A stretch of 64,000 nt of DNA from Marmoricola endophyticus (GTDB lineage Bacteria > Actinomycetota > Actinomycetes > Propionibacteriales > Nocardioidaceae): the NCBI RefSeq assembly GCF_014644415.1, contig NZ_BMKQ01000001.1:2617217-2681216 (forward strand). The letters run 5' to 3'. Numbering within the stretch: position 1 is the stretch's first letter; the number at the start of each line of letters is the position of its first letter. The notes below the pieces were generated by a model that worked only from the letters and a program-made list of their open reading frames with translations, did not search any database and was not told the origin of the DNA. Positions 5,407-12,307 of this stretch are shown here, in pieces. The position numbers were made by a program, and so were the translations under genes.

Positions 5407-5982
5407 TCAGCGACCGACGACCGAGGTGTCCACGGTCCGGTGGAAGTGCATGCCCGCCAGCCCGCCGAGCATCGCCGCCACGAGACTGACGACGACGACA
5501 CCGACCAGCAGGACGGCAGCCAGTGCCGTGGTCTCGCCGAGGTCCGTGGGGAGCCGCGGGAAGGAGTCGATCTTCTGCAGGACGTCGAACTTCGCTCCGC
5601 CGATGGCGCTCAGCACCGCGACGACGATCGCGGCGAGCACGGCCCAGCCGAACACGGCGACCCCTTGGCGAAGCCCGTCGAAGCGGGCCATCCGGCCGGC
5701 GACGTACCCGCCGCAGTAGTACGCCACGAACACGACGACCAGGACGACGACCACACCACCCCATCCGATCGTCTCGGCATCGCGCGAGCCTGCGTCCAGC
5801 GTGTCGGTCAGGTCCAGGGCGAGGCCGGCCGCGGCCAGCAGGGCCGTCAGCAGGACGAGCATCCCGCTCGCGGTCAGCCACCCGAAGAAGGCACAGAACG
5901 GCTTCATGCCGCCGAACTCGCGCTCGCCCCTCTGCCTGGTCTCCTTCGTGCTGGGCTGGTGGTGCTCCGGGCTCGACGTCAT
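5407..5982 (-). CDS. Four-span membrane protein in TetR operon
   Basis: A 191-residue integral membrane protein. The first 30 residues are polar (SSPEHHQPSTKETRQRGERE). Membrane spans fall near residues 33-55, 76-98, 112-135 and 158-182, with the last loop carrying GGLAGMHFHR. It resembles uncharacterised actinobacterial membrane proteins and no transporter signature is evident. The ATG is chosen because GAAGAGGA precedes it; an upstream in-frame start at 6021 lies inside the operator region. Two palindromic sites directly upstream and the TetR gene downstream suggest a repressor-controlled envelope protein. The large hairpin between the two genes (GTGCGTACGG at 5337 and CCGTACGCAC at 5389) may shape relative expression. 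Confidence 0.8.
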   Translation of the reverse strand: MTSSPEHHQPSTKETRQRGEREFGGMKPFCAFFGWLTASGMLVLLTALLAAAGLALDLTDTLDAGSRDAETIGWGGVVVVLVVVFVAYYCGGYVAGRMARFDGLRQGVAVFGWAVLAAIVVAVLSAIGGAKFDVLQKIDSFPRLPTDLGETTALAAVLLVGVVVVSLVAAMLGGLAGMHFHRTVDTSVVGR

Positions 5983-6001: not shown

Positions 6002-6043
6002 GTGCTTACGTTGTAAGTCAATCACGTGCTTACACTGTAAGTC
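6002..6043. promoter_or_regulatory. Twin TetR-type operators
   Basis: GTGCTTACGTTGTAAGTC (6002-6019) and GTGCTTACACTGTAAGTC (6026-6043) are direct copies 24 bases apart. Each contains the palindrome CTTAC-N3-GTAAG, a form common for TetR proteins. They lie just before the start of the membrane gene whose operon ends with a TetR gene. Confidence 0.7.
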
Positions 6044-6107: not shown

Positions 6108-6281
6108 ATGGGACTCGCCGACAAGGCCAAGAACGCCGCCGAGGACGCCCTCGGCAAGGCCAAGGAGGTCGTGGGTGACGCCACCGACGACAAGGACCTG
6201 AAGGCCGAGGGCAAGAAGGACCAGGCCTCCTCCTCGCTGAAGGACGCGGGCGAGAACGTCAAGGACGCGTTCAAGAAGTAG
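6108..6281 (+). CDS. CsbD-family stress protein
   Basis: A 57-residue, highly charged helical protein rich in Lys, Asp, Glu and Ala (GLADKAKNAAEDALGKAKEV at the N-terminus and KKDQASSSLKDAGENVKDAF at the C-terminus). This matches the CsbD family, small proteins induced by general stress in many bacteria; biochemical function is unknown. The ATG follows GAAGGAG at 6094-6100 with 7-base spacing. It is divergent from the TetR-regulated membrane gene, so the operators at 6002-6043 could also affect it. A strong hairpin just after the stop ends the transcript. Confidence 0.88.
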   Translation: MGLADKAKNAAEDALGKAKEVVGDATDDKDLKAEGKKDQASSSLKDAGENVKDAFKK

Positions 6282-6491: not shown

Positions 6492-7136
6492 ATGACCGCA
6501 CTGCTTCTCGGCTCCATCAGCGCCGTAGCCGACACCTCCGAGCTCCAGCGCCAGGCCTTCAACCGGGCCTTCACCGAGCACGGCCTGGACTGGCGGTGGG
6601 ACCGGGAGGAGTACCGGTCGCTGCTGGGCACCAACGGAGGTCGGGACCGCGTCGCGGCGTACGCCGCCGAGCGGGGCGAGGACGTGGACGCCGAGGCGGT
6701 GCACGCGACCAAGTCGCGGCTGTTCCGCGAGTCGCTCGCCGACGGTGTCGAGCCGCGGGCCGGGGTGATGGAGACCGTCGCCGCGGCGCGTGAGAAGGGC
6801 GTGAAGGTCGCCCTCGTGACCACCACCTCGCCCGAGAACGTCGCGGCGCTGCTGGACGCGCTGCCCGAGCTGTCCGCCGATGACCTCGACCTGGTGGTCG
6901 ACGCGACCCACGTCGAGGTGCCCAAGCCAGACCCTGCGGTGTACGCCTACGCCATGAAGAGGCTGGGGGAGCTGCCCGAGGACTGCGTCGCGGTCGAGGA
7001 CAACCCCGGTGGGCTCACCGCCGCCACGGTCGCCGGTGTCCGCTGCATCGCCTTCCCCAACGCGAACACCGCGGCACTGGAGTTCCCCGGGGCCGAGCGG
7101 ACCGTCGACCACCTGACCGCCGACCTGGTCGCCTGA
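6492..7136 (+). CDS. HAD-superfamily protein lacking the catalytic nucleophile, first gene of mycosporine operon
   Basis: A 214-residue protein with the layout of beta-phosphoglucomutase-type HAD hydrolases. Motif II ([11 protein letters not shown]), motif III (VPKPDP, with the conserved Lys) and motif IV (VEDNPGG) are intact, and the helical cap sits between motifs I and II. Motif I is not: where active members have FDxDGT(L/V)xDSE this protein has [12 protein letters not shown] at residues 6-17, so both aspartates, including the one phosphorylated during catalysis, are gone. It is therefore unlikely to be a normal phosphatase. ATG start with GGAGG 9 bases upstream. mysA begins 16 bases after its stop. 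A structural or noncatalytic role, or different chemistry on the mycosporine pathway, is inferred. Confidence 0.85.
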
Positions 7137-7152
7137 GGCAGGAGCCACCGCG

Positions 7153-8412
7153 ATGAGCCAGACCGTGACCCCACCCGCACCCGCTGCCGCCTCGCCGAGC
7201 GCCTCTTTGCAGGCGCACGAGCGCTCGTTCCGAGTCGAGGCGTACGAGAAGATCGACTACACGCTGCAGTACGTCGACGGAGTCTTCGACCCCTCGTCGA
7301 CCGAGCTGGCCGACCTCTACCGGCCCTGGGGTCGGTGCGTGATGGTGGTCGACAGCGCCGTCGAGGAGCTGTACGGCGACGCCGCCCGCGCCTACTTCGA
7401 GCACCACCGGATCCCGCTGACGGTCCTCTCCCTGGAGCTCGACGAGACCCGCAAGACCTGGTCGACGGTCGAGCGGATCGTGGACTTCTTCGCCGAGACA
7501 GGTTTGGTCCGCAAGGAGCCGGCGCTGGTCGTCGGCGGCGGGCTGACCACCGACATCGCCGGCCTCGCGTGCGCGGCCTTCCGTCGGTCGACTCCCTACG
7601 TGCGGATCCCGACGACGCTGATCGGGCTGATCGACGCCAGCGTCTCGATCAAGGTCGCGGTCAACCACAAGAAGTACAAGAACCGGCTCGGCGCGTACCA
7701 CGCCTCCTCGACGGTGCTGCTGGACTTCGGTTTCCTGGCCACCCTGCCCACCGATCAGGTCCGCAACGGCATGGCCGAGCTGGTCAAGATCACCACGGTC
7801 GGTGACGCGGCCAGCTTCGACCTGCTCGAGAAGTACGGCGAAGACCTGCTGGCCACGCACTTCGGCCACCTGGAGGCCGAGGGTGGGACCGCGGAGCTCC
7901 GTGAGGCGGCACACACCCTCACCTATCGCTCCATCCAGCGGATGCTCGAGCTCGAGGTGCCCAACCTGCACGAGCTCGACCTGGACCGGGTGATCGCGTT
8001 CGGGCACACCTGGAGCCCGACGCTGGAGCTCGAGCCGGACGTGCCGTTCTTCCACGGTCACGCGATCAGCATCGACATGGCGCTCTCGACGACGCTGGCC
8101 GAGCGACGCGGCCACGTCAGCGCCGCCGAGCGCGACCGGGTGCTCGGGCTGATGAGCTCCCTCGGCCTCGCTCTGGACAGCCCGCACCTGACCCACGACG
8201 TCCTCGAGCGGGCGACGGCCTCGATCCTGCAGACCCGCGACGGCCTGCTGCGGGCGGCGGTGCCCGGGCCGATCGGCACCTGCCTGTTCCTCAACGACGT
8301 CGACGTCACCGAGCTGGGCGACGCGCTGGCCGCCCACCGCGAGCTGGTGTCGACGTACCCGCGGGGCGGCGACGGCGTCTCGGCGTTCGTCGGCGACGCC
8401 GACCCCACGTGA
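7153..8412 (+). CDS. mysA: Desmethyl-4-deoxygadusol synthase (sedoheptulose 7-phosphate cyclase)
   Basis: A 419-residue sugar-phosphate cyclase of the dehydroquinate-synthase fold. In mycosporine biosynthesis the enzyme uses NAD+ and Zn2+ to cyclise sedoheptulose 7-phosphate to desmethyl-4-deoxygadusol. The sequence follows cyanobacterial MysA closely: [20 protein letters not shown] at the N-terminus, [15 protein letters not shown] (NAD binding, about residue 130), [40 protein letters not shown], and metal-ligand regions [12 protein letters not shown] and [14 protein letters not shown] with AGGAG upstream. Its stop overlaps the mysB GTG by 4 bases. The related EEVS activity is the main alternative, but the neighbours favour the mycosporine assignment. 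Confidence 0.95.
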
Positions 8413-9212
8413 GCGACTCCGGGAGCCGGGTGGACCTGCGCCCGGTCACTCCCGTGTCGCTGCTTGCCGCAGAGCTGGAGGAGCTGGTCCGCACGGCGCC
8501 GCCGGCCGACGACCGGTGGCGGGAGCGGCTGGCCAGGGCGCACGACCTGGCCTCCGGCCTGGACGCCTACGTCGCCTCGGTCACCACGCCGGCCTCGGTG
8601 GCGCTCGAGGCGCTGGAGCAGCGGACGATCGAGACGGAGTGGGCCGGACCCCTCGAGGCCGAGATGCTCTCGGGCCACGTCGAGGGCCAGCTGCTGCGCA
8701 CCCTGGTGCGGGCGACCGGCGCCGGATCCGTGCTCGAGATCGGGATGTTCACCGGCTACTCGGCCCTGGCGATGGCGCAGGCGCTGCCGGCCGGCGGGCG
8801 GCTGGTGGCCTGCGAGGTCGACCCGCTGGCGGCCGCGCTGGCGACCGAGGCGTTCGACGCGGCCGGCGTGAGCATCGACGTCCGGGTCGGGCCGGCGGAC
8901 CGGACGCTGGACGGCCTCGCGGGAGAGCGCTTCGACCTGGTCTTCCTCGACGCCGACAAGGCCGGCTACCTCGGCTACCTGCACCAGCTGCTCGACCTCG
9001 ACCTGCTCAGCGAGCGCGCGCTGGTCGTCGTCGACAACACGCTGATGCAGGGCGAGCCGTGGCTCGGGTCGAGCACGCCTAACGGCGAGGCGGTGGCCGC
9101 CTTCAACGCCGCGGTCGCCGACGACCCACGCGTGGAGCAGGTGGTGCTGCCCGTACGTGACGGGGTGACGCTGCTGATGCGGACGGAGCCGGGCTCGGTG
9201 GCCGCCTCGTGA
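8409..9212 (+). CDS. mysB: Mycosporine-pathway O-methyltransferase
   Basis: A 267-residue SAM-dependent methyltransferase of the caffeoyl-CoA/COMT-like class 3 group. Motif I is [20 protein letters not shown] (about residues 103-122), followed by the acidic VACEVDP, and motif [13 protein letters not shown] holds the metal-ligand Asp residues; [10 protein letters not shown] follows. In the pathway it methylates desmethyl-4-deoxygadusol to 4-deoxygadusol. The GTG start lies inside the mysA stop (GTGA) and its own stop overlaps the next GTG in the same way, so translation is coupled on both sides. Position right after mysA matches the cyanobacterial order. Confidence 0.93.
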
Positions 9213-9982
9213 GGGCCGAGCCGCTCGCTCCGATCGGAGTGCGGGTGAGCGACGTCCGTGTCGGTGGTGACCTCGACGCGAGCACCGTCGCCGCGCTGGT
9301 CGACCTGCTGGCCGAGCACGGGGTCGTCGTGCTGTCCGACCAGCACGTCGACGACGAGGCCTTCGAGGCCTTCCTCCGGCTCTTCGGAGATCCGGTCTTC
9401 ACCGAGGGCGAGACCCCCGTCGACGGCCACCCGGATCTCAACGTGATCAGCAACGTCGGGCGCACCACGCCGCCGCGCAGCACCTTCCACGTCGACACCA
9501 GCTACGTTGCCGCGCCGCCGGCGTACACCGCGCTGCGCACCGTGCAGGTGCCTGCGCAAGGTGGGCAGACACTGTTCAGCAACCAGTACCGCGCCCTGGA
9601 GACCCTGCCCGAGGAGGTGCGTGCGGACCTGGCCGGACGCACGATCAGGCACCGGGTCACCGGCGTCCAGCCTGCCGAGGGGGCCGAGGTCGAGGCGTGG
9701 CACCCCGCCGTGCGGCGGCACCCGGTCTCGGGCCGGGAGACGCTCTACCTCTCCACGCCGGCCCGCTGCACCGCCGTGTCCGGCCTCTCCGAGGAGGCGG
9801 CCGGAGACCTGGTGGCGATGTTGCACGCGCACTCCACGCTGCCCGACAACGTGTACCGCCACGCGTGGGCACCCGGCGACGTGGTCATGTGGGACAACGG
9901 CTGCGTGCTGCACCAGGCCGACCACTCCGGCGTCGTCGGGGACCGGGTGATGCACCGCGGTATGGCCACGGGGTACGCATGA
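9209..9982 (+). CDS. TauD/TfdA-type Fe(II)/2-oxoglutarate dioxygenase in the mycosporine operon
   Basis: A 257-residue non-haem iron oxygenase. The iron ligands are clear: H94-x-D96 in STFHVDTSY and H235 in NGCVLHQADHS; R246, 11 residues later, is placed to bind the 2-oxoglutarate carboxylate. The family hydroxylates or oxidatively cleaves small substrates, releasing succinate and CO2. It sits between mysB and mysC with 4-base overlaps on both sides, so it is very probably a tailoring enzyme of the pathway. The known cyanobacterial oxygenase MysH, which makes palythine types, belongs to the PhyH branch; this one is of the TauD branch, so the product may differ. Hydroxylation or amino-acid side-chain cleavage are both possible. 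Confidence 0.88.
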   Translation: MRAEPLAPIGVRVSDVRVGGDLDASTVAALVDLLAEHGVVVLSDQHVDDEAFEAFLRLFGDPVFTEGETPVDGHPDLNVISNVGRTTPPRSTFHVDTSYVAAPPAYTALRTVQVPAQGGQTLFSNQYRALETLPEEVRADLAGRTIRHRVTGVQPAEGAEVEAWHPAVRRHPVSGRETLYLSTPARCTAVSGLSEEAAGDLVAMLHAHSTLPDNVYRHAWAPGDVVMWDNGCVLHQADHSGVVGDRVMHRGMATGYA

Positions 9983-11289
9983 GGCTGCGCGCCCGTGCAC
10001 GCACGCTCGGCGCGCTCGCGCTGCTCACCACCGCGCTCCCGGCCAACCTCGTCCTGACCGGCGCGGCCCTGGCCCGCGGAGCGGTACGGGGTCGGCCCAC
10101 GCCCGCGACGCCCGCCCGGCGCCGCACGGTCCTGCTGACCGGCGGCAAGATGACCAAGTCGCTGACCCTGGCGCGGGCCTTCCACGCCGCCGGGCACCGT
10201 GTCGTGCTGGCCGAGTCGCCGACGTACCGGTTGAGCGGGCACCGCTTCTCGCGCGCCGTCGACGCCTTCCGGACGATCCCCGACGCCACGGACCCCTCCT
10301 ACGCCCTCGCGCTGCGCGAGCTGGTCCGCGAGGAGGGCGTCGACGTCGTGATCCCGGTGTGCAGTCCCGTGTCCAGCCGGTACGACGCCCGCGCCAAGGC
10401 TGTGCTCGGCTGCGAGGTGCTGCACCCCGACCCGGAGACGCTGGAGGCCGTCGACGACAAGGCCCGCTTCGCCGAGCTGGCGCACTCGCTCGGCCTCGCC
10501 GTGCCCGAGACGCACCGGGTGAGCGACCCCGAAGAGGTCGTCGCCTTCGACTTCGCCGCCCACCCCGGTCGCCGCTACGTGCTGAAGAACCTCGACTACG
10601 ACCCGGTCAACCGGCTGGACCTGACCCCCCTGCCTCGGCCGACCGCGCCCGAGACCGCGGCCTTGGCCCGCTCCAAGCCGATCAGCGCCGACCACCCGTG
10701 GATCCTGCAGGAGCTGGTCGAGGGGCGGGAGTACTGCACCCACGGCACCGTTCGCGACGGACGGCTTCAGGTCTACACCTGCTGCGCCTCCTCGGCCTTC
10801 CAGCTCAACTACGAGACCGTCGACAAGCCCGCCGTCCGGGCCTGGGTCGAGCGGTTCTGCGAGGGCACCGGGACCACCGGACAGCTCTCGTTCGACCTGA
10901 TCGAGCAGGCCGACGGCACCGTCAAGGGGATCGAGTGCAACCCCCGCACGCACTCGGCGATCACGCTGTTCGCCGGGGACGCGCGGCTGGCGCCGGCGTA
11001 CCTCGAGGAGCGGGAGGCGGCGATCGAGCCGCTCGCCGGGGCGCGGCCGACGTACTGGACCTACCAGGAGGCCTGGCGACTGCTGCGTCACCCGGGCACG
11101 CTGCCGCAGCGTTGGCGGGTGGTCCGCGAGGGGCGGGACGCGATCTTCGACGTCGACGACCCGCTGCCGTTCCTGGCCGTCCACCACCTGCAGATCCCGT
11201 GGCTCCTGGTGCGCTGCCTGGTCCGCGGTGGCGACTTCGTGCGGGTCGACGTCAACATCGGCAAGCTCGTGGAGGCCGGCGGTGACTGA
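9979..11289 (+). CDS. mysC: ATP-grasp mycosporine-glycine synthase
   Basis: A 436-residue ATP-grasp ligase that joins glycine to 4-deoxygadusol to give mycosporine-glycine. It follows cyanobacterial MysC from end to end: a hydrophobic N-terminal segment (residues 9-35, LGALALLTTALPANLVLTGA), the nucleotide-fold start VLLTGGKMTKSLTLARAFHA, RLSGHRFSRAVD, the ATP-grasp lid YVLKNLDYDPVNRLDLT, QELVEGREYCTHGTVRDGRL, metal-binding IECNPRTHSAIT, and the C-terminal NIGKLVEAGGD. The N-terminal hydrophobic stretch is also present in cyanobacterial homologues and may bring the enzyme to the membrane. ATG overlaps the dioxygenase stop (ATGA). Confidence 0.95.
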   Translation: MRLRARARTLGALALLTTALPANLVLTGAALARGAVRGRPTPATPARRRTVLLTGGKMTKSLTLARAFHAAGHRVVLAESPTYRLSGHRFSRAVDAFRTIPDATDPSYALALRELVREEGVDVVIPVCSPVSSRYDARAKAVLGCEVLHPDPETLEAVDDKARFAELAHSLGLAVPETHRVSDPEEVVAFDFAAHPGRRYVLKNLDYDPVNRLDLTPLPRPTAPETAALARSKPISADHPWILQELVEGREYCTHGTVRDGRLQVYTCCASSAFQLNYETVDKPAVRAWVERFCEGTGTTGQLSFDLIEQADGTVKGIECNPRTHSAITLFAGDARLAPAYLEEREAAIEPLAGARPTYWTYQEAWRLLRHPGTLPQRWRVVREGRDAIFDVDDPLPFLAVHHLQIPWLLVRCLVRGGDFVRVDVNIGKLVEAGGD

Positions 11290-12307
11290 CGCGCTGCGCG
11301 TGCTGCACCTCGTCGGCTCGCCGACCGACGACTTCCACGCCGACCTCTCGCGGCTCTACGCCCGGGACGCGCTGCAGGCGCTGGCCGACGCCCGCTTCGT
11401 GCACCTGGTCGCGCACGTGGCCCCGGGCGGTGGCTGGTCCTTCCCCGACGACCTGAGCCCGGCAGCGCTGGGAGCCGCGCCGGTGCTCGCGCTGCCCGAC
11501 GCGCTCGCGCGCATCGGGGGCCTGCAGGTCGACCTCGCCCTGCCGCAGATGTTCTGCCCGGCGGGGATGACGACGTACCGCGCGCTGCTGGACCTGCTCG
11601 GCGTCCCCTTCGTCGGCAACCGGCCCGAGACGATGACGCTGGGGACCAGCAAGCCCCTTGCGCGAGCAGTGGTCGCCGCCGCCGGCGGCGACGTGCCCGC
11701 GGGGGAGGTGCTCCGACCGGGGGAGGAGCCCACGCTGGCGCCGCCGGTCGTGGTCAAGCCGGCCGCCGCCGACAACTCCGCCGGGGTGGCCCTCGTCCGC
11801 GACCCCGGCGAGTACGACGCCGCACTCGCCGCGGCCCGGGAGGTGGGCCCCGACGTTCTCGTCGAGCGGTACGTCGAGCTCGGCCGCGAGGTGCGCTGCG
11901 GTGTGGTCGACCGCGGCGACCACCTGGAGGTCCTCCCGCTGGAGGAGTACGCCGTCGAGTCCGCGAGCAAGCCGATCCGCGACGCCGCCGACAAGCTGGC
12001 CCGTGACGACGCCGGCGACCTGCGTCTCGTGGCCAAGGACGACGAGCACGCGTGGATCGTGCCCGCCGACGACCCGGTCAACGCAGCCGTGGGGGAGGCG
12101 GCCCGGCTGGCCTACCGCGCGCTCGGCTGCCGCCACTACGGGCTGTTCGACTTCCGCGTCGACCCCGAGGGGCGGCCGTGGTTCCTCGAGGCGGGGCTCT
12201 ACAACTCCTTCGCCCGGGCCAGTGTCGTGGCCGTCATGGCCGCTGCGGCCGGGCACGACGTGGCCGACCTGTTCGCCGCGGCCGCCGCGCTTGCCCTGGA
12301 CGCATAG
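11282..12307 (+). CDS. mysD: D-Ala-D-Ala-ligase-like mycosporine ligase
   Basis: A 341-residue ATP-grasp enzyme related to D-alanine-D-alanine ligase. In shinorine and porphyra-334 pathways MysD condenses a second amino acid (Ser, Thr or other) onto mycosporine-glycine to form the imine chromophore that absorbs UV-A. Visible regions are FVGNRPETMTLGTSKPLARA, VVKPAAADNSAGVAL (ATP-grasp), VERYVELGREVRCGVV, and the metal-binding C-terminal FDFRVDPEGRPWFLEAGLYN. GTG start overlapping mysC by 8 bases. The amino acid used cannot be read from sequence. The gene ends inside the 5' arm of a strong hairpin. Confidence 0.92.
   Translation: MTDALRVLHLVGSPTDDFHADLSRLYARDALQALADARFVHLVAHVAPGGGWSFPDDLSPAALGAAPVLALPDALARIGGLQVDLALPQMFCPAGMTTYRALLDLLGVPFVGNRPETMTLGTSKPLARAVVAAAGGDVPAGEVLRPGEEPTLAPPVVVKPAAADNSAGVALVRDPGEYDAALAAAREVGPDVLVERYVELGREVRCGVVDRGDHLEVLPLEEYAVESASKPIRDAADKLARDDAGDLRLVAKDDEHAWIVPADDPVNAAVGEAARLAYRALGCRHYGLFDFRVDPEGRPWFLEAGLYNSFARASVVAVMAAAAGHDVADLFAAAAALALDA

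What the first reader, a model, noticed from the sequence alone, without database searches (positions are those of the whole stretch)
6492..12307. Mycosporine-like amino acid operon in an actinobacterium
Six genes in one strand with 4- to 8-base overlaps (HAD-like, mysA, mysB, TauD-type, mysC, mysD). mysA, mysC and mysD resemble cyanobacterial proteins over full length. UV-sunscreen production is known in only some actinobacteria, and the cluster composition here is not the standard one. It is the clearest specialised pathway in the window.
Basis: partly seen in the sequence, partly recalled or inferred. Interest (0 to 1): 0.8.

Follow-up and report, generated by a model that had tools for sequence, protein, structure and literature searches.

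The report
Bacterial sunscreen operon with dead phosphatase
A soil-type bacterium carries a compact operon for making a UV-absorbing mycosporine sunscreen, and its first gene encodes a phosphatase relative whose catalytic aspartates are missing in every copy examined, which points to an accessory role that can be tested.

Summary
They form a mycosporine-like amino acid (MAA) operon: HAD, mysA (cyclase), mysB (O-methyltransferase), a TauD-type Fe/2OG oxygenase, mysC and mysD (ATP-grasp). The composition is usual for actinobacteria: of 60 named loci with a close TauD, all 60 have mys genes beside it, 52 in one of two six-gene orders, and a 2025 preprint (PMC11888242) already reports HAD and TauD as conserved there. 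The operon is a new member of a known kind.

What I did not find in print (searches; word search 97) is the state of the HAD. Its nearest solved structures are CbbY sugar-bisphosphate phosphatases, but the catalytic motif DxDGT reads GS[IL][SG] in 83 of 83 aligned copies, while key residues of motifs II-IV are invariant. It occurs in exactly the 27 of 341 family genomes that hold a close mysA. HADs with the same loss also occur in one alphaproteobacterial MAA operon and in three loci without mys genes nearby. I read it as a conserved, catalytically dead, probably ligand-binding accessory protein.

Likely product: shinorine (MysD L249/A257), trimmed by TauD to palythine-type MAAs. No chemistry was tested.

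The parts
6492..7136 (+). CbbY-type HAD protein with motif I lost (G7-S8-I9-S10 in place of DxDG); motif II T110, motif III K145 and motif IV E169-D170 kept: pseudophosphatase
   Evidence: AlphaFold2 model mean pLDDT 96.3
7153..8412 (+). mysA: sugar-phosphate cyclase of the desmethyl-4-deoxygadusol synthase type
8409..9212 (+). mysB: O-methyltransferase (Methyltransf_3)
9209..9982 (+). TauD/TfdA-type Fe(II)/2-oxoglutarate oxygenase; H94, D96, H235 and R250 conserved in 61 of 61 MAA-linked copies
9979..11289 (+). mysC: ATP-grasp type, expected to form mycosporine-glycine
11282..12307 (+). mysD: D-Ala-D-Ala ligase-like; omega-loop residues L249 and A257 (L-A, the shinorine pattern)

Best explanation
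The six genes are one operon for an MAA sunscreen. Inferred route: MysA cyclises sedoheptulose 7-phosphate to desmethyl-4-deoxygadusol, MysB methylates it to 4-deoxygadusol, MysC adds glycine, MysD adds serine to give shinorine, and the TauD oxygenase hydroxylates an amino acid side chain so that it falls off, giving palythine-type MAAs. The HAD is not a working phosphatase. It is a CbbY relative that has lost both motif-I aspartates but kept the rest of the phosphate and metal site, and it most likely acts as a binding or accessory protein for a phosphorylated or sugar-like pathway compound. Shown here: gene content, conservation, linkage and motif state. Inferred: all reactions, the product, and the role of the HAD.
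For: MysA nearest 5tpr at 547 bits against 271 and 116 or less. Close TauD (59-69%) beside mys genes in 60 of 60 loci, distant TauD (33-41%) in 0 of 20. HAD at E<=1e-40 in the same 27 of 341 family genomes that have mysA at E<=1e-150; the other 2 of the 29 genomes with mysA at E<=1e-60 have only a 41% relative and no such HAD. HAD (E<=1e-30) and mysA (E<=1e-60) in the same 7 of 396 phylum genomes, window included. Motif I lost, T110, K145, E169 and D170 invariant in 83 of 83 copies. CbbY nearest by fold (E 2.7e-19, TMq 0.90) and by profile (5e-55). Control: the HADs 3 of 3 beside a second cyclase in G007, G027 and G040 keep DMDGT; that cyclase (tested for G007) is nearer 4p53 (392 bits) than 5tpr (261). 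MysD L-A in 53 of 61 aligned copies, the shinorine pattern of PMC11983340 (passages read). PMC11888242 (passages read) relates unpublished work in which a Rhodococcus fascians operon with HAD and TauD gave shinorine, palythine and palythine-serine. In a Nostoc cluster a PhyH-family oxygenase gene lies between mysC and mysD, a different oxygenase in the same kind of cluster.
Against: No product has been measured for this strain. One genome's MAA operon (G007, L154) has no TauD match within the 19.9 kb read, so TauD is not part of every such operon. One HAD copy (L053) is split between two frames, by a real frameshift or an assembly fault. The L-A rule was derived from cyanobacterial MysDs; 6 of 61 copies read L-V, which the passages that I read do not cover. 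HADs with the same motif loss occur in three loci without mys genes nearby (L174/L202, L199, L201), two of them in genomes without a mysC match at E<=1e-10, so this HAD type is not exclusive to MAA making.
Confidence: 0.8

Rival explanations
1. The HAD is still a phosphatase, using other residues (for example the invariant Ser8) to dephosphorylate a sugar phosphate and steer carbon into the pathway.
For: T110, K145, E169 and D170 are invariant in 83 of 83, so the phosphate and metal site is under selection; the predicted fold is that of CbbY.
Against: HAD phosphatases use the first motif-I Asp as nucleophile and the second as acid/base (established knowledge); both are gone in all 83 copies, while intact HADs lie beside the 4p53-like cyclase in the same family.
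Confidence: 0.1
2. The TauD does not make palythines but hydroxylates or decarboxylates another position, giving an MAA not yet described.
For: The MAA-linked TauDs stand apart, with a gap from 59% to 41% identity among the 80 loci kept, and are not of the MysH (phytanoyl-CoA dioxygenase) family: only PF02668 is hit. For the cyanobacterial TauD-type MysI the reaction is a proposal as well (PMC10510106, passages read).
Against: The R. fascians product list told in PMC11888242 includes palythine and palythine-serine (second-hand, from a meeting abstract).
Confidence: 0.3
3. The operon makes a C7-cyclitol other than an MAA.
For: MysA belongs to a superfamily that also holds other sugar-phosphate cyclases and DHQS.
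Against: MysA scores twice as many bits against 5tpr as against 4p53, and mysB, mysC and mysD follow in the same operon.
Confidence: 0.04

Closest known systems
Actinobacterial MAA clusters with HAD and TauD (GATOR-GC preprint PMC11888242; Pseudonocardia alni window; Rhodococcus fascians D188 operon)
   Same: Same six gene kinds; passages read.
   Different: The passages read give the HAD role as unvalidated; the words inactive, catalytic, nucleophile, pseudoenzyme and phosphatase do not occur in its main text (figures and supplements not seen). This window has the order HAD-A-B-TauD-C-D, the rarer of the two main orders (15 against 37 of 60).
Cyanobacterial MAA cluster (Nostoc sp. HK-01 plasmid, L176)
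   Same: mysA, B, C and D at 51-59% identity.
   Different: No HAD or TauD match at E<=0.01 in the 17 kb read; a PhyH-family gene lies between mysC and mysD.
MysI, TauD/TfdA oxygenase of Nostoc sp. UHCC 0926 (PMC10510106, passages read)
   Same: Same protein superfamily by its description, similar proposed reaction.
   Different: Sequence not compared here; none of the 25 rows listed (of 218 records) in a plasmid search was cyanobacterial.
CbbY xylulose-1,5-bisphosphate phosphatase (PDB 4uar, 4uat)
   Same: Fold, and motif II-IV residues.
   Different: CbbY D8 and D10 stand at G7 and I9 here; HADs in two rubisco operons (L175, L177) keep DVDGT.

Membership tests
MAA biosynthetic operon | MysA-type cyclase distinct from DHQS and EEVS | tested here: met
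   That 5tpr is the Anabaena DDGS and 4p53 the EEVS ValA is recalled; the entries are labelled '3-dehydroquinate synthase' and 'Cyclase'
MAA biosynthetic operon | mysB, mysC and a mysD (or NRPS) in the same operon | tested here: met
MAA biosynthetic operon | Makes a 310-360 nm absorbing cyclohexenone or cyclohexenimine | not testable with these tools
   needs expression and LC-MS
TauD/TfdA oxygenase | HxD...H triad and 2OG-binding Arg | tested here: met
   61 of 61 MAA-linked and 20 of 20 other copies
Catalytic HAD phosphatase (CbbY) | Motif I DxD nucleophile and acid/base | tested here: not met
   GS[IL] in 83 of 83
Catalytic HAD phosphatase (CbbY) | Motif II Thr/Ser, motif III Lys, motif IV acidic residues | tested here: met
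   T110, K145, E169, D170 in 83 of 83; which residue belongs to which motif is established knowledge read onto the alignment
MysH-type palythine synthase | Phytanoyl-CoA dioxygenase family | tested here: not met
   only PF02668 TauD hit

The most novel reading that the evidence does not exclude
The HAD is a natural substrate trap: a CbbY that lost its nucleophile, probably once, and kept its binding site, so that it holds a phosphorylated or reactive pathway compound (sedoheptulose 7-phosphate, or an enol phosphate made by MysC) without hydrolysing it, and hands it on or protects it. It stays when mysA is replaced by a different long cyclase (L149, L150), when TauD is missing (L154), and in one genome where no mysA is found (L006), which would place it next to MysC or MysD rather than MysA.
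Probability: 0.25. Interest if true: 0.7.

Novelty: new member of a known kind. Interest (0 to 1): 0.5.

Why it matters
The operon suggests that this strain can make a UV sunscreen; 27 of the 341 genomes searched in its family carry both the close mysA and the HAD. The wider point is the first gene: a conserved pseudoenzyme, found in MAA operons of actinobacteria and of at least one alphaproteobacterium-type genome, whose role the preprint that reported it left open. Seeing that it cannot work as a phosphatase by the usual route turns 'role unvalidated' into a specific question about binding or assembly, and anyone who refactors an actinobacterial MAA operon needs to know whether to keep it.

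Tried and rejected
Plain DHQS or EEVS for mysA: rejected. Sequencing error or wrong start as the reason for the missing HAD motif: rejected, since the same letters recur in 83 of 83 copies. One copy (L053, split between two frames) was dropped before that count; its first piece also reads GSIS. HAD unique to MAA clusters: rejected by L174/L202, L199 and L201.

A conserved regulator: a TetR gene lies beside the cluster in 34 of the 60 named loci (next to HAD and divergent in 32, same direction in L018, at the far end in L065), but the L005 protein has no match in the window better than E 1.8. A shared operator palindrome was sought in 31 TetR-HAD spacers: an exact 6-base half-site in 8 of 31 and an 8-base one in 4 of 31, so nothing is claimed. 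Cyanobacterial genomes: I tried to reach them through L019, a record titled Candidatus Melainabacteria (246 genomes); two of its three best hits match contig numbers and positions of actinobacterial genomes already seen, so the sample was apparently the same phylum and cyanobacterial MysI was not compared. VIA-align was not on the machine. Papers: two searches and the word search 97 showed nothing on a dead HAD; wider searches were 2, 21, 23, 27 and 103 (listings; passages read only in PMC11888242, PMC10510106, PMC11983340 and PMC10212915). sought inactive HADs in general and listed one dehalogenase review, not opened. (CbbY) gave no active-site residues; (MAA catabolism) listed three papers, none opened.

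Samples are not independent: the named loci (L003-L061, L065) and the unnamed family loci (L083-L108) overlap in part, since some HAD N-termini are identical between the sets.

Full report
Observation. Four junctions overlap by 4, 4, 4 and 8 bases; HAD and mysA are 16 bases apart. Pfam and NCBIfam agree with the names given, except that MysC has no Pfam match.

MAA identity. MysA matches 5tpr at 547 bits, 4p53 at 271 and the other chains, nearly all labelled DHQS, at 116 or less; it stays far under the aroB cutoff (173 against 305), and the genome has another match at 30%. The names DDGS for 5tpr and EEVS ValA for 4p53 are recalled. The four core proteins are 51-59% identical to those of a Nostoc plasmid cluster. 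I take the operon as MAA-making with little doubt.

How usual it is. Sixty of the 80 are 59-69% identical, and all 60 lie beside mys genes; the other 20 are 33-41% identical and none does. Orders: 37 HAD-A-B-C-D-TauD, 15 HAD-A-B-TauD-C-D (as here), 8 others. HAD is matched in 57 of the 60; the three without it (L037, L048, L056) are cut by contig ends. Genera named in the record titles include Nocardioides, Williamsia, Rhodococcus, Mycolicibacterium, Klenkia, Pseudonocardia, Aeromicrobium and Patulibacter. In the window's family 29 of 341 genomes have a mysA match at E<=1e-60; 27 of these are close, two are 41%.

The HAD. The 27 genomes with a close mysA are exactly the 27 with this HAD at E<=1e-40. 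In a sample of 396 genomes of the phylum (which shares at least two genomes with the family set) the same 7 have both; two of these (G448, G586) carry a different cyclase (see below). The HAD's nearest solved structures are CbbY (Foldseek 4uat E 2.7e-19, TMq 0.90; profile 5e-55). CbbY has DVDGT where this family has GSIST: G7 stands at CbbY D8 and I9 at D10. G7 and S8 are 83 of 83, I9 80 (L in 3), S10 81 (G in 2); T110, K145, P146, E169, D170 and N171 are 83 of 83 (L053 dropped because its HAD is split between two frames, though its first piece also reads GSIS). HADs in two rubisco operons (L175, L177) keep the aspartates, and so do the three HADs beside a second cyclase in G007, G027 and G040 (L151-L153). 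That cyclase, tested for G007, is nearer 4p53 (392 bits) than 5tpr (261). G007 thus has a dead HAD beside its MAA cyclase and an intact one beside the other.

Outside actinobacteria. A Roseobacter litoralis plasmid HAD (40% identical) shows the same loss. In 190 genomes of the class of L064's genome (record titled Alphaproteobacteria bacterium), 18 had a match to it at E<=1e-25: 3 with GSI (L179-L181) and 15 with DxD. One of the 3 lies in an MAA operon, cyclase-mysB-mysC-mysD-HAD (L200). The genomes of the other two gave no mysC match at E<=1e-10, nor did the Roseobacter plasmid (its chromosome was not searched). In a tree of 46 HADs built without the motif columns, the 26 dead ones form one group (support 93/96, short of the program's star) and need one change. 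Three of the four alphaproteobacterial-type dead HADs have long branches and two an odd make-up, so the single loss is likely but not proven.

What the HAD may do. Genomes that lack other parts help. L006 (Microlunatus flavus) has HAD-TauD-mysC-mysD; neither mysA nor mysB is matched in the locus and no mysA in the genome at E<=1e-40. L154 (G007) has HAD-A-B-C-D and no TauD in the 19.9 kb read. L149 and L150 have another cyclase. The HAD persists in all of these with its GSIS motif, which fits a role near MysC or MysD, but each case rests on one or two genomes. Its binding site is kept and its usual chemistry is gone, so binding is my first guess; regulation or scaffolding fit as well.

Product. 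The two omega-loop residues that set MysD preference in cyanobacteria (PMC11983340, passages read) were mapped through the Nostoc HK-01 MysD onto L249 and A257 here; L-A occurs in 53 of 61 aligned copies, window included (6 L-V, 1 L-S, 1 gap). L-A is the shinorine pattern. The mapping assumes that HK-01 numbering equals that of the N. punctiforme enzyme, which was not checked against its sequence; the spacing of eight between the two residues agrees. TauD as palythine maker follows PMC11888242 and the MysI proposal in PMC10510106 (passages read); neither is an in-vitro proof. The Nostoc cluster has a PhyH-family gene between mysC and mysD and no TauD match, so two unrelated-looking oxygenase families take a similar place.

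Prior art. PMC11888242 (preprint, 2025) names HAD and TauD as conserved genes of actinobacterial MAA clusters, states that they were found in Actinomycetota, Pseudomonadota (spelt Pseudomonadata) and Bacillota and not in Cyanobacteriota, and calls the HAD role unvalidated. PMC10510106 does describe a TauD-type MysI in cyanobacteria. A word search of the preprint's main text for inactive, catalytic, nucleophile, pseudoenzyme and phosphatase found none. Its supplements and figures were not seen, and most subscription papers are outside the library.

Verdict. An ordinary actinobacterial MAA operon with one point worth following: its HAD is a conserved pseudoenzyme.

Noticed in passing
L149 (G448), L150 (G586), L200 (G1090): MAA operons whose cyclase is a 577-638 aa ORF (35-38% to mysA) with a long N-terminal part (no Pfam match in L149 and L150; L200 not scanned) and a PRTCCDG stretch where the window's MysA reads IKVAVNH.
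   Followed up: partly
L199 (G1147) and L201 (G1095): HADs with the same motif loss in small genomes without a mysC match, both near a SnoaL-like gene and an ABC transporter gene; perhaps an uptake or breakdown locus.
   Followed up: partly
L006 7271-11213: Microlunatus flavus cluster HAD-TauD-mysC-mysD without mysA and mysB; no mysA in the genome at E<=1e-40.
   Followed up: partly
L041: MAG cluster with no mysB match in the locus; mysA and mysC are about 80 bases apart.
   Followed up: partly
L005 1985-2575 and 33 other named loci: A TetR gene beside the cluster, mostly divergent from HAD; no counterpart in the window.
   Followed up: partly
window 6005-6041: Two CTTAC-N3-GTAAG palindromes (6005-6017, 6029-6041) between a 191-aa ORF (5407-5982, -, no Pfam match) and a CsbD-like gene (6108-6281, +): a possible operator.
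   Followed up: no
L176 9295-10098: In the Nostoc sp. HK-01 plasmid MAA cluster a gene annotated hypothetical, between mysC and mysD on the other strand, is a PhyH-family oxygenase, a MysH candidate.
   Followed up: no
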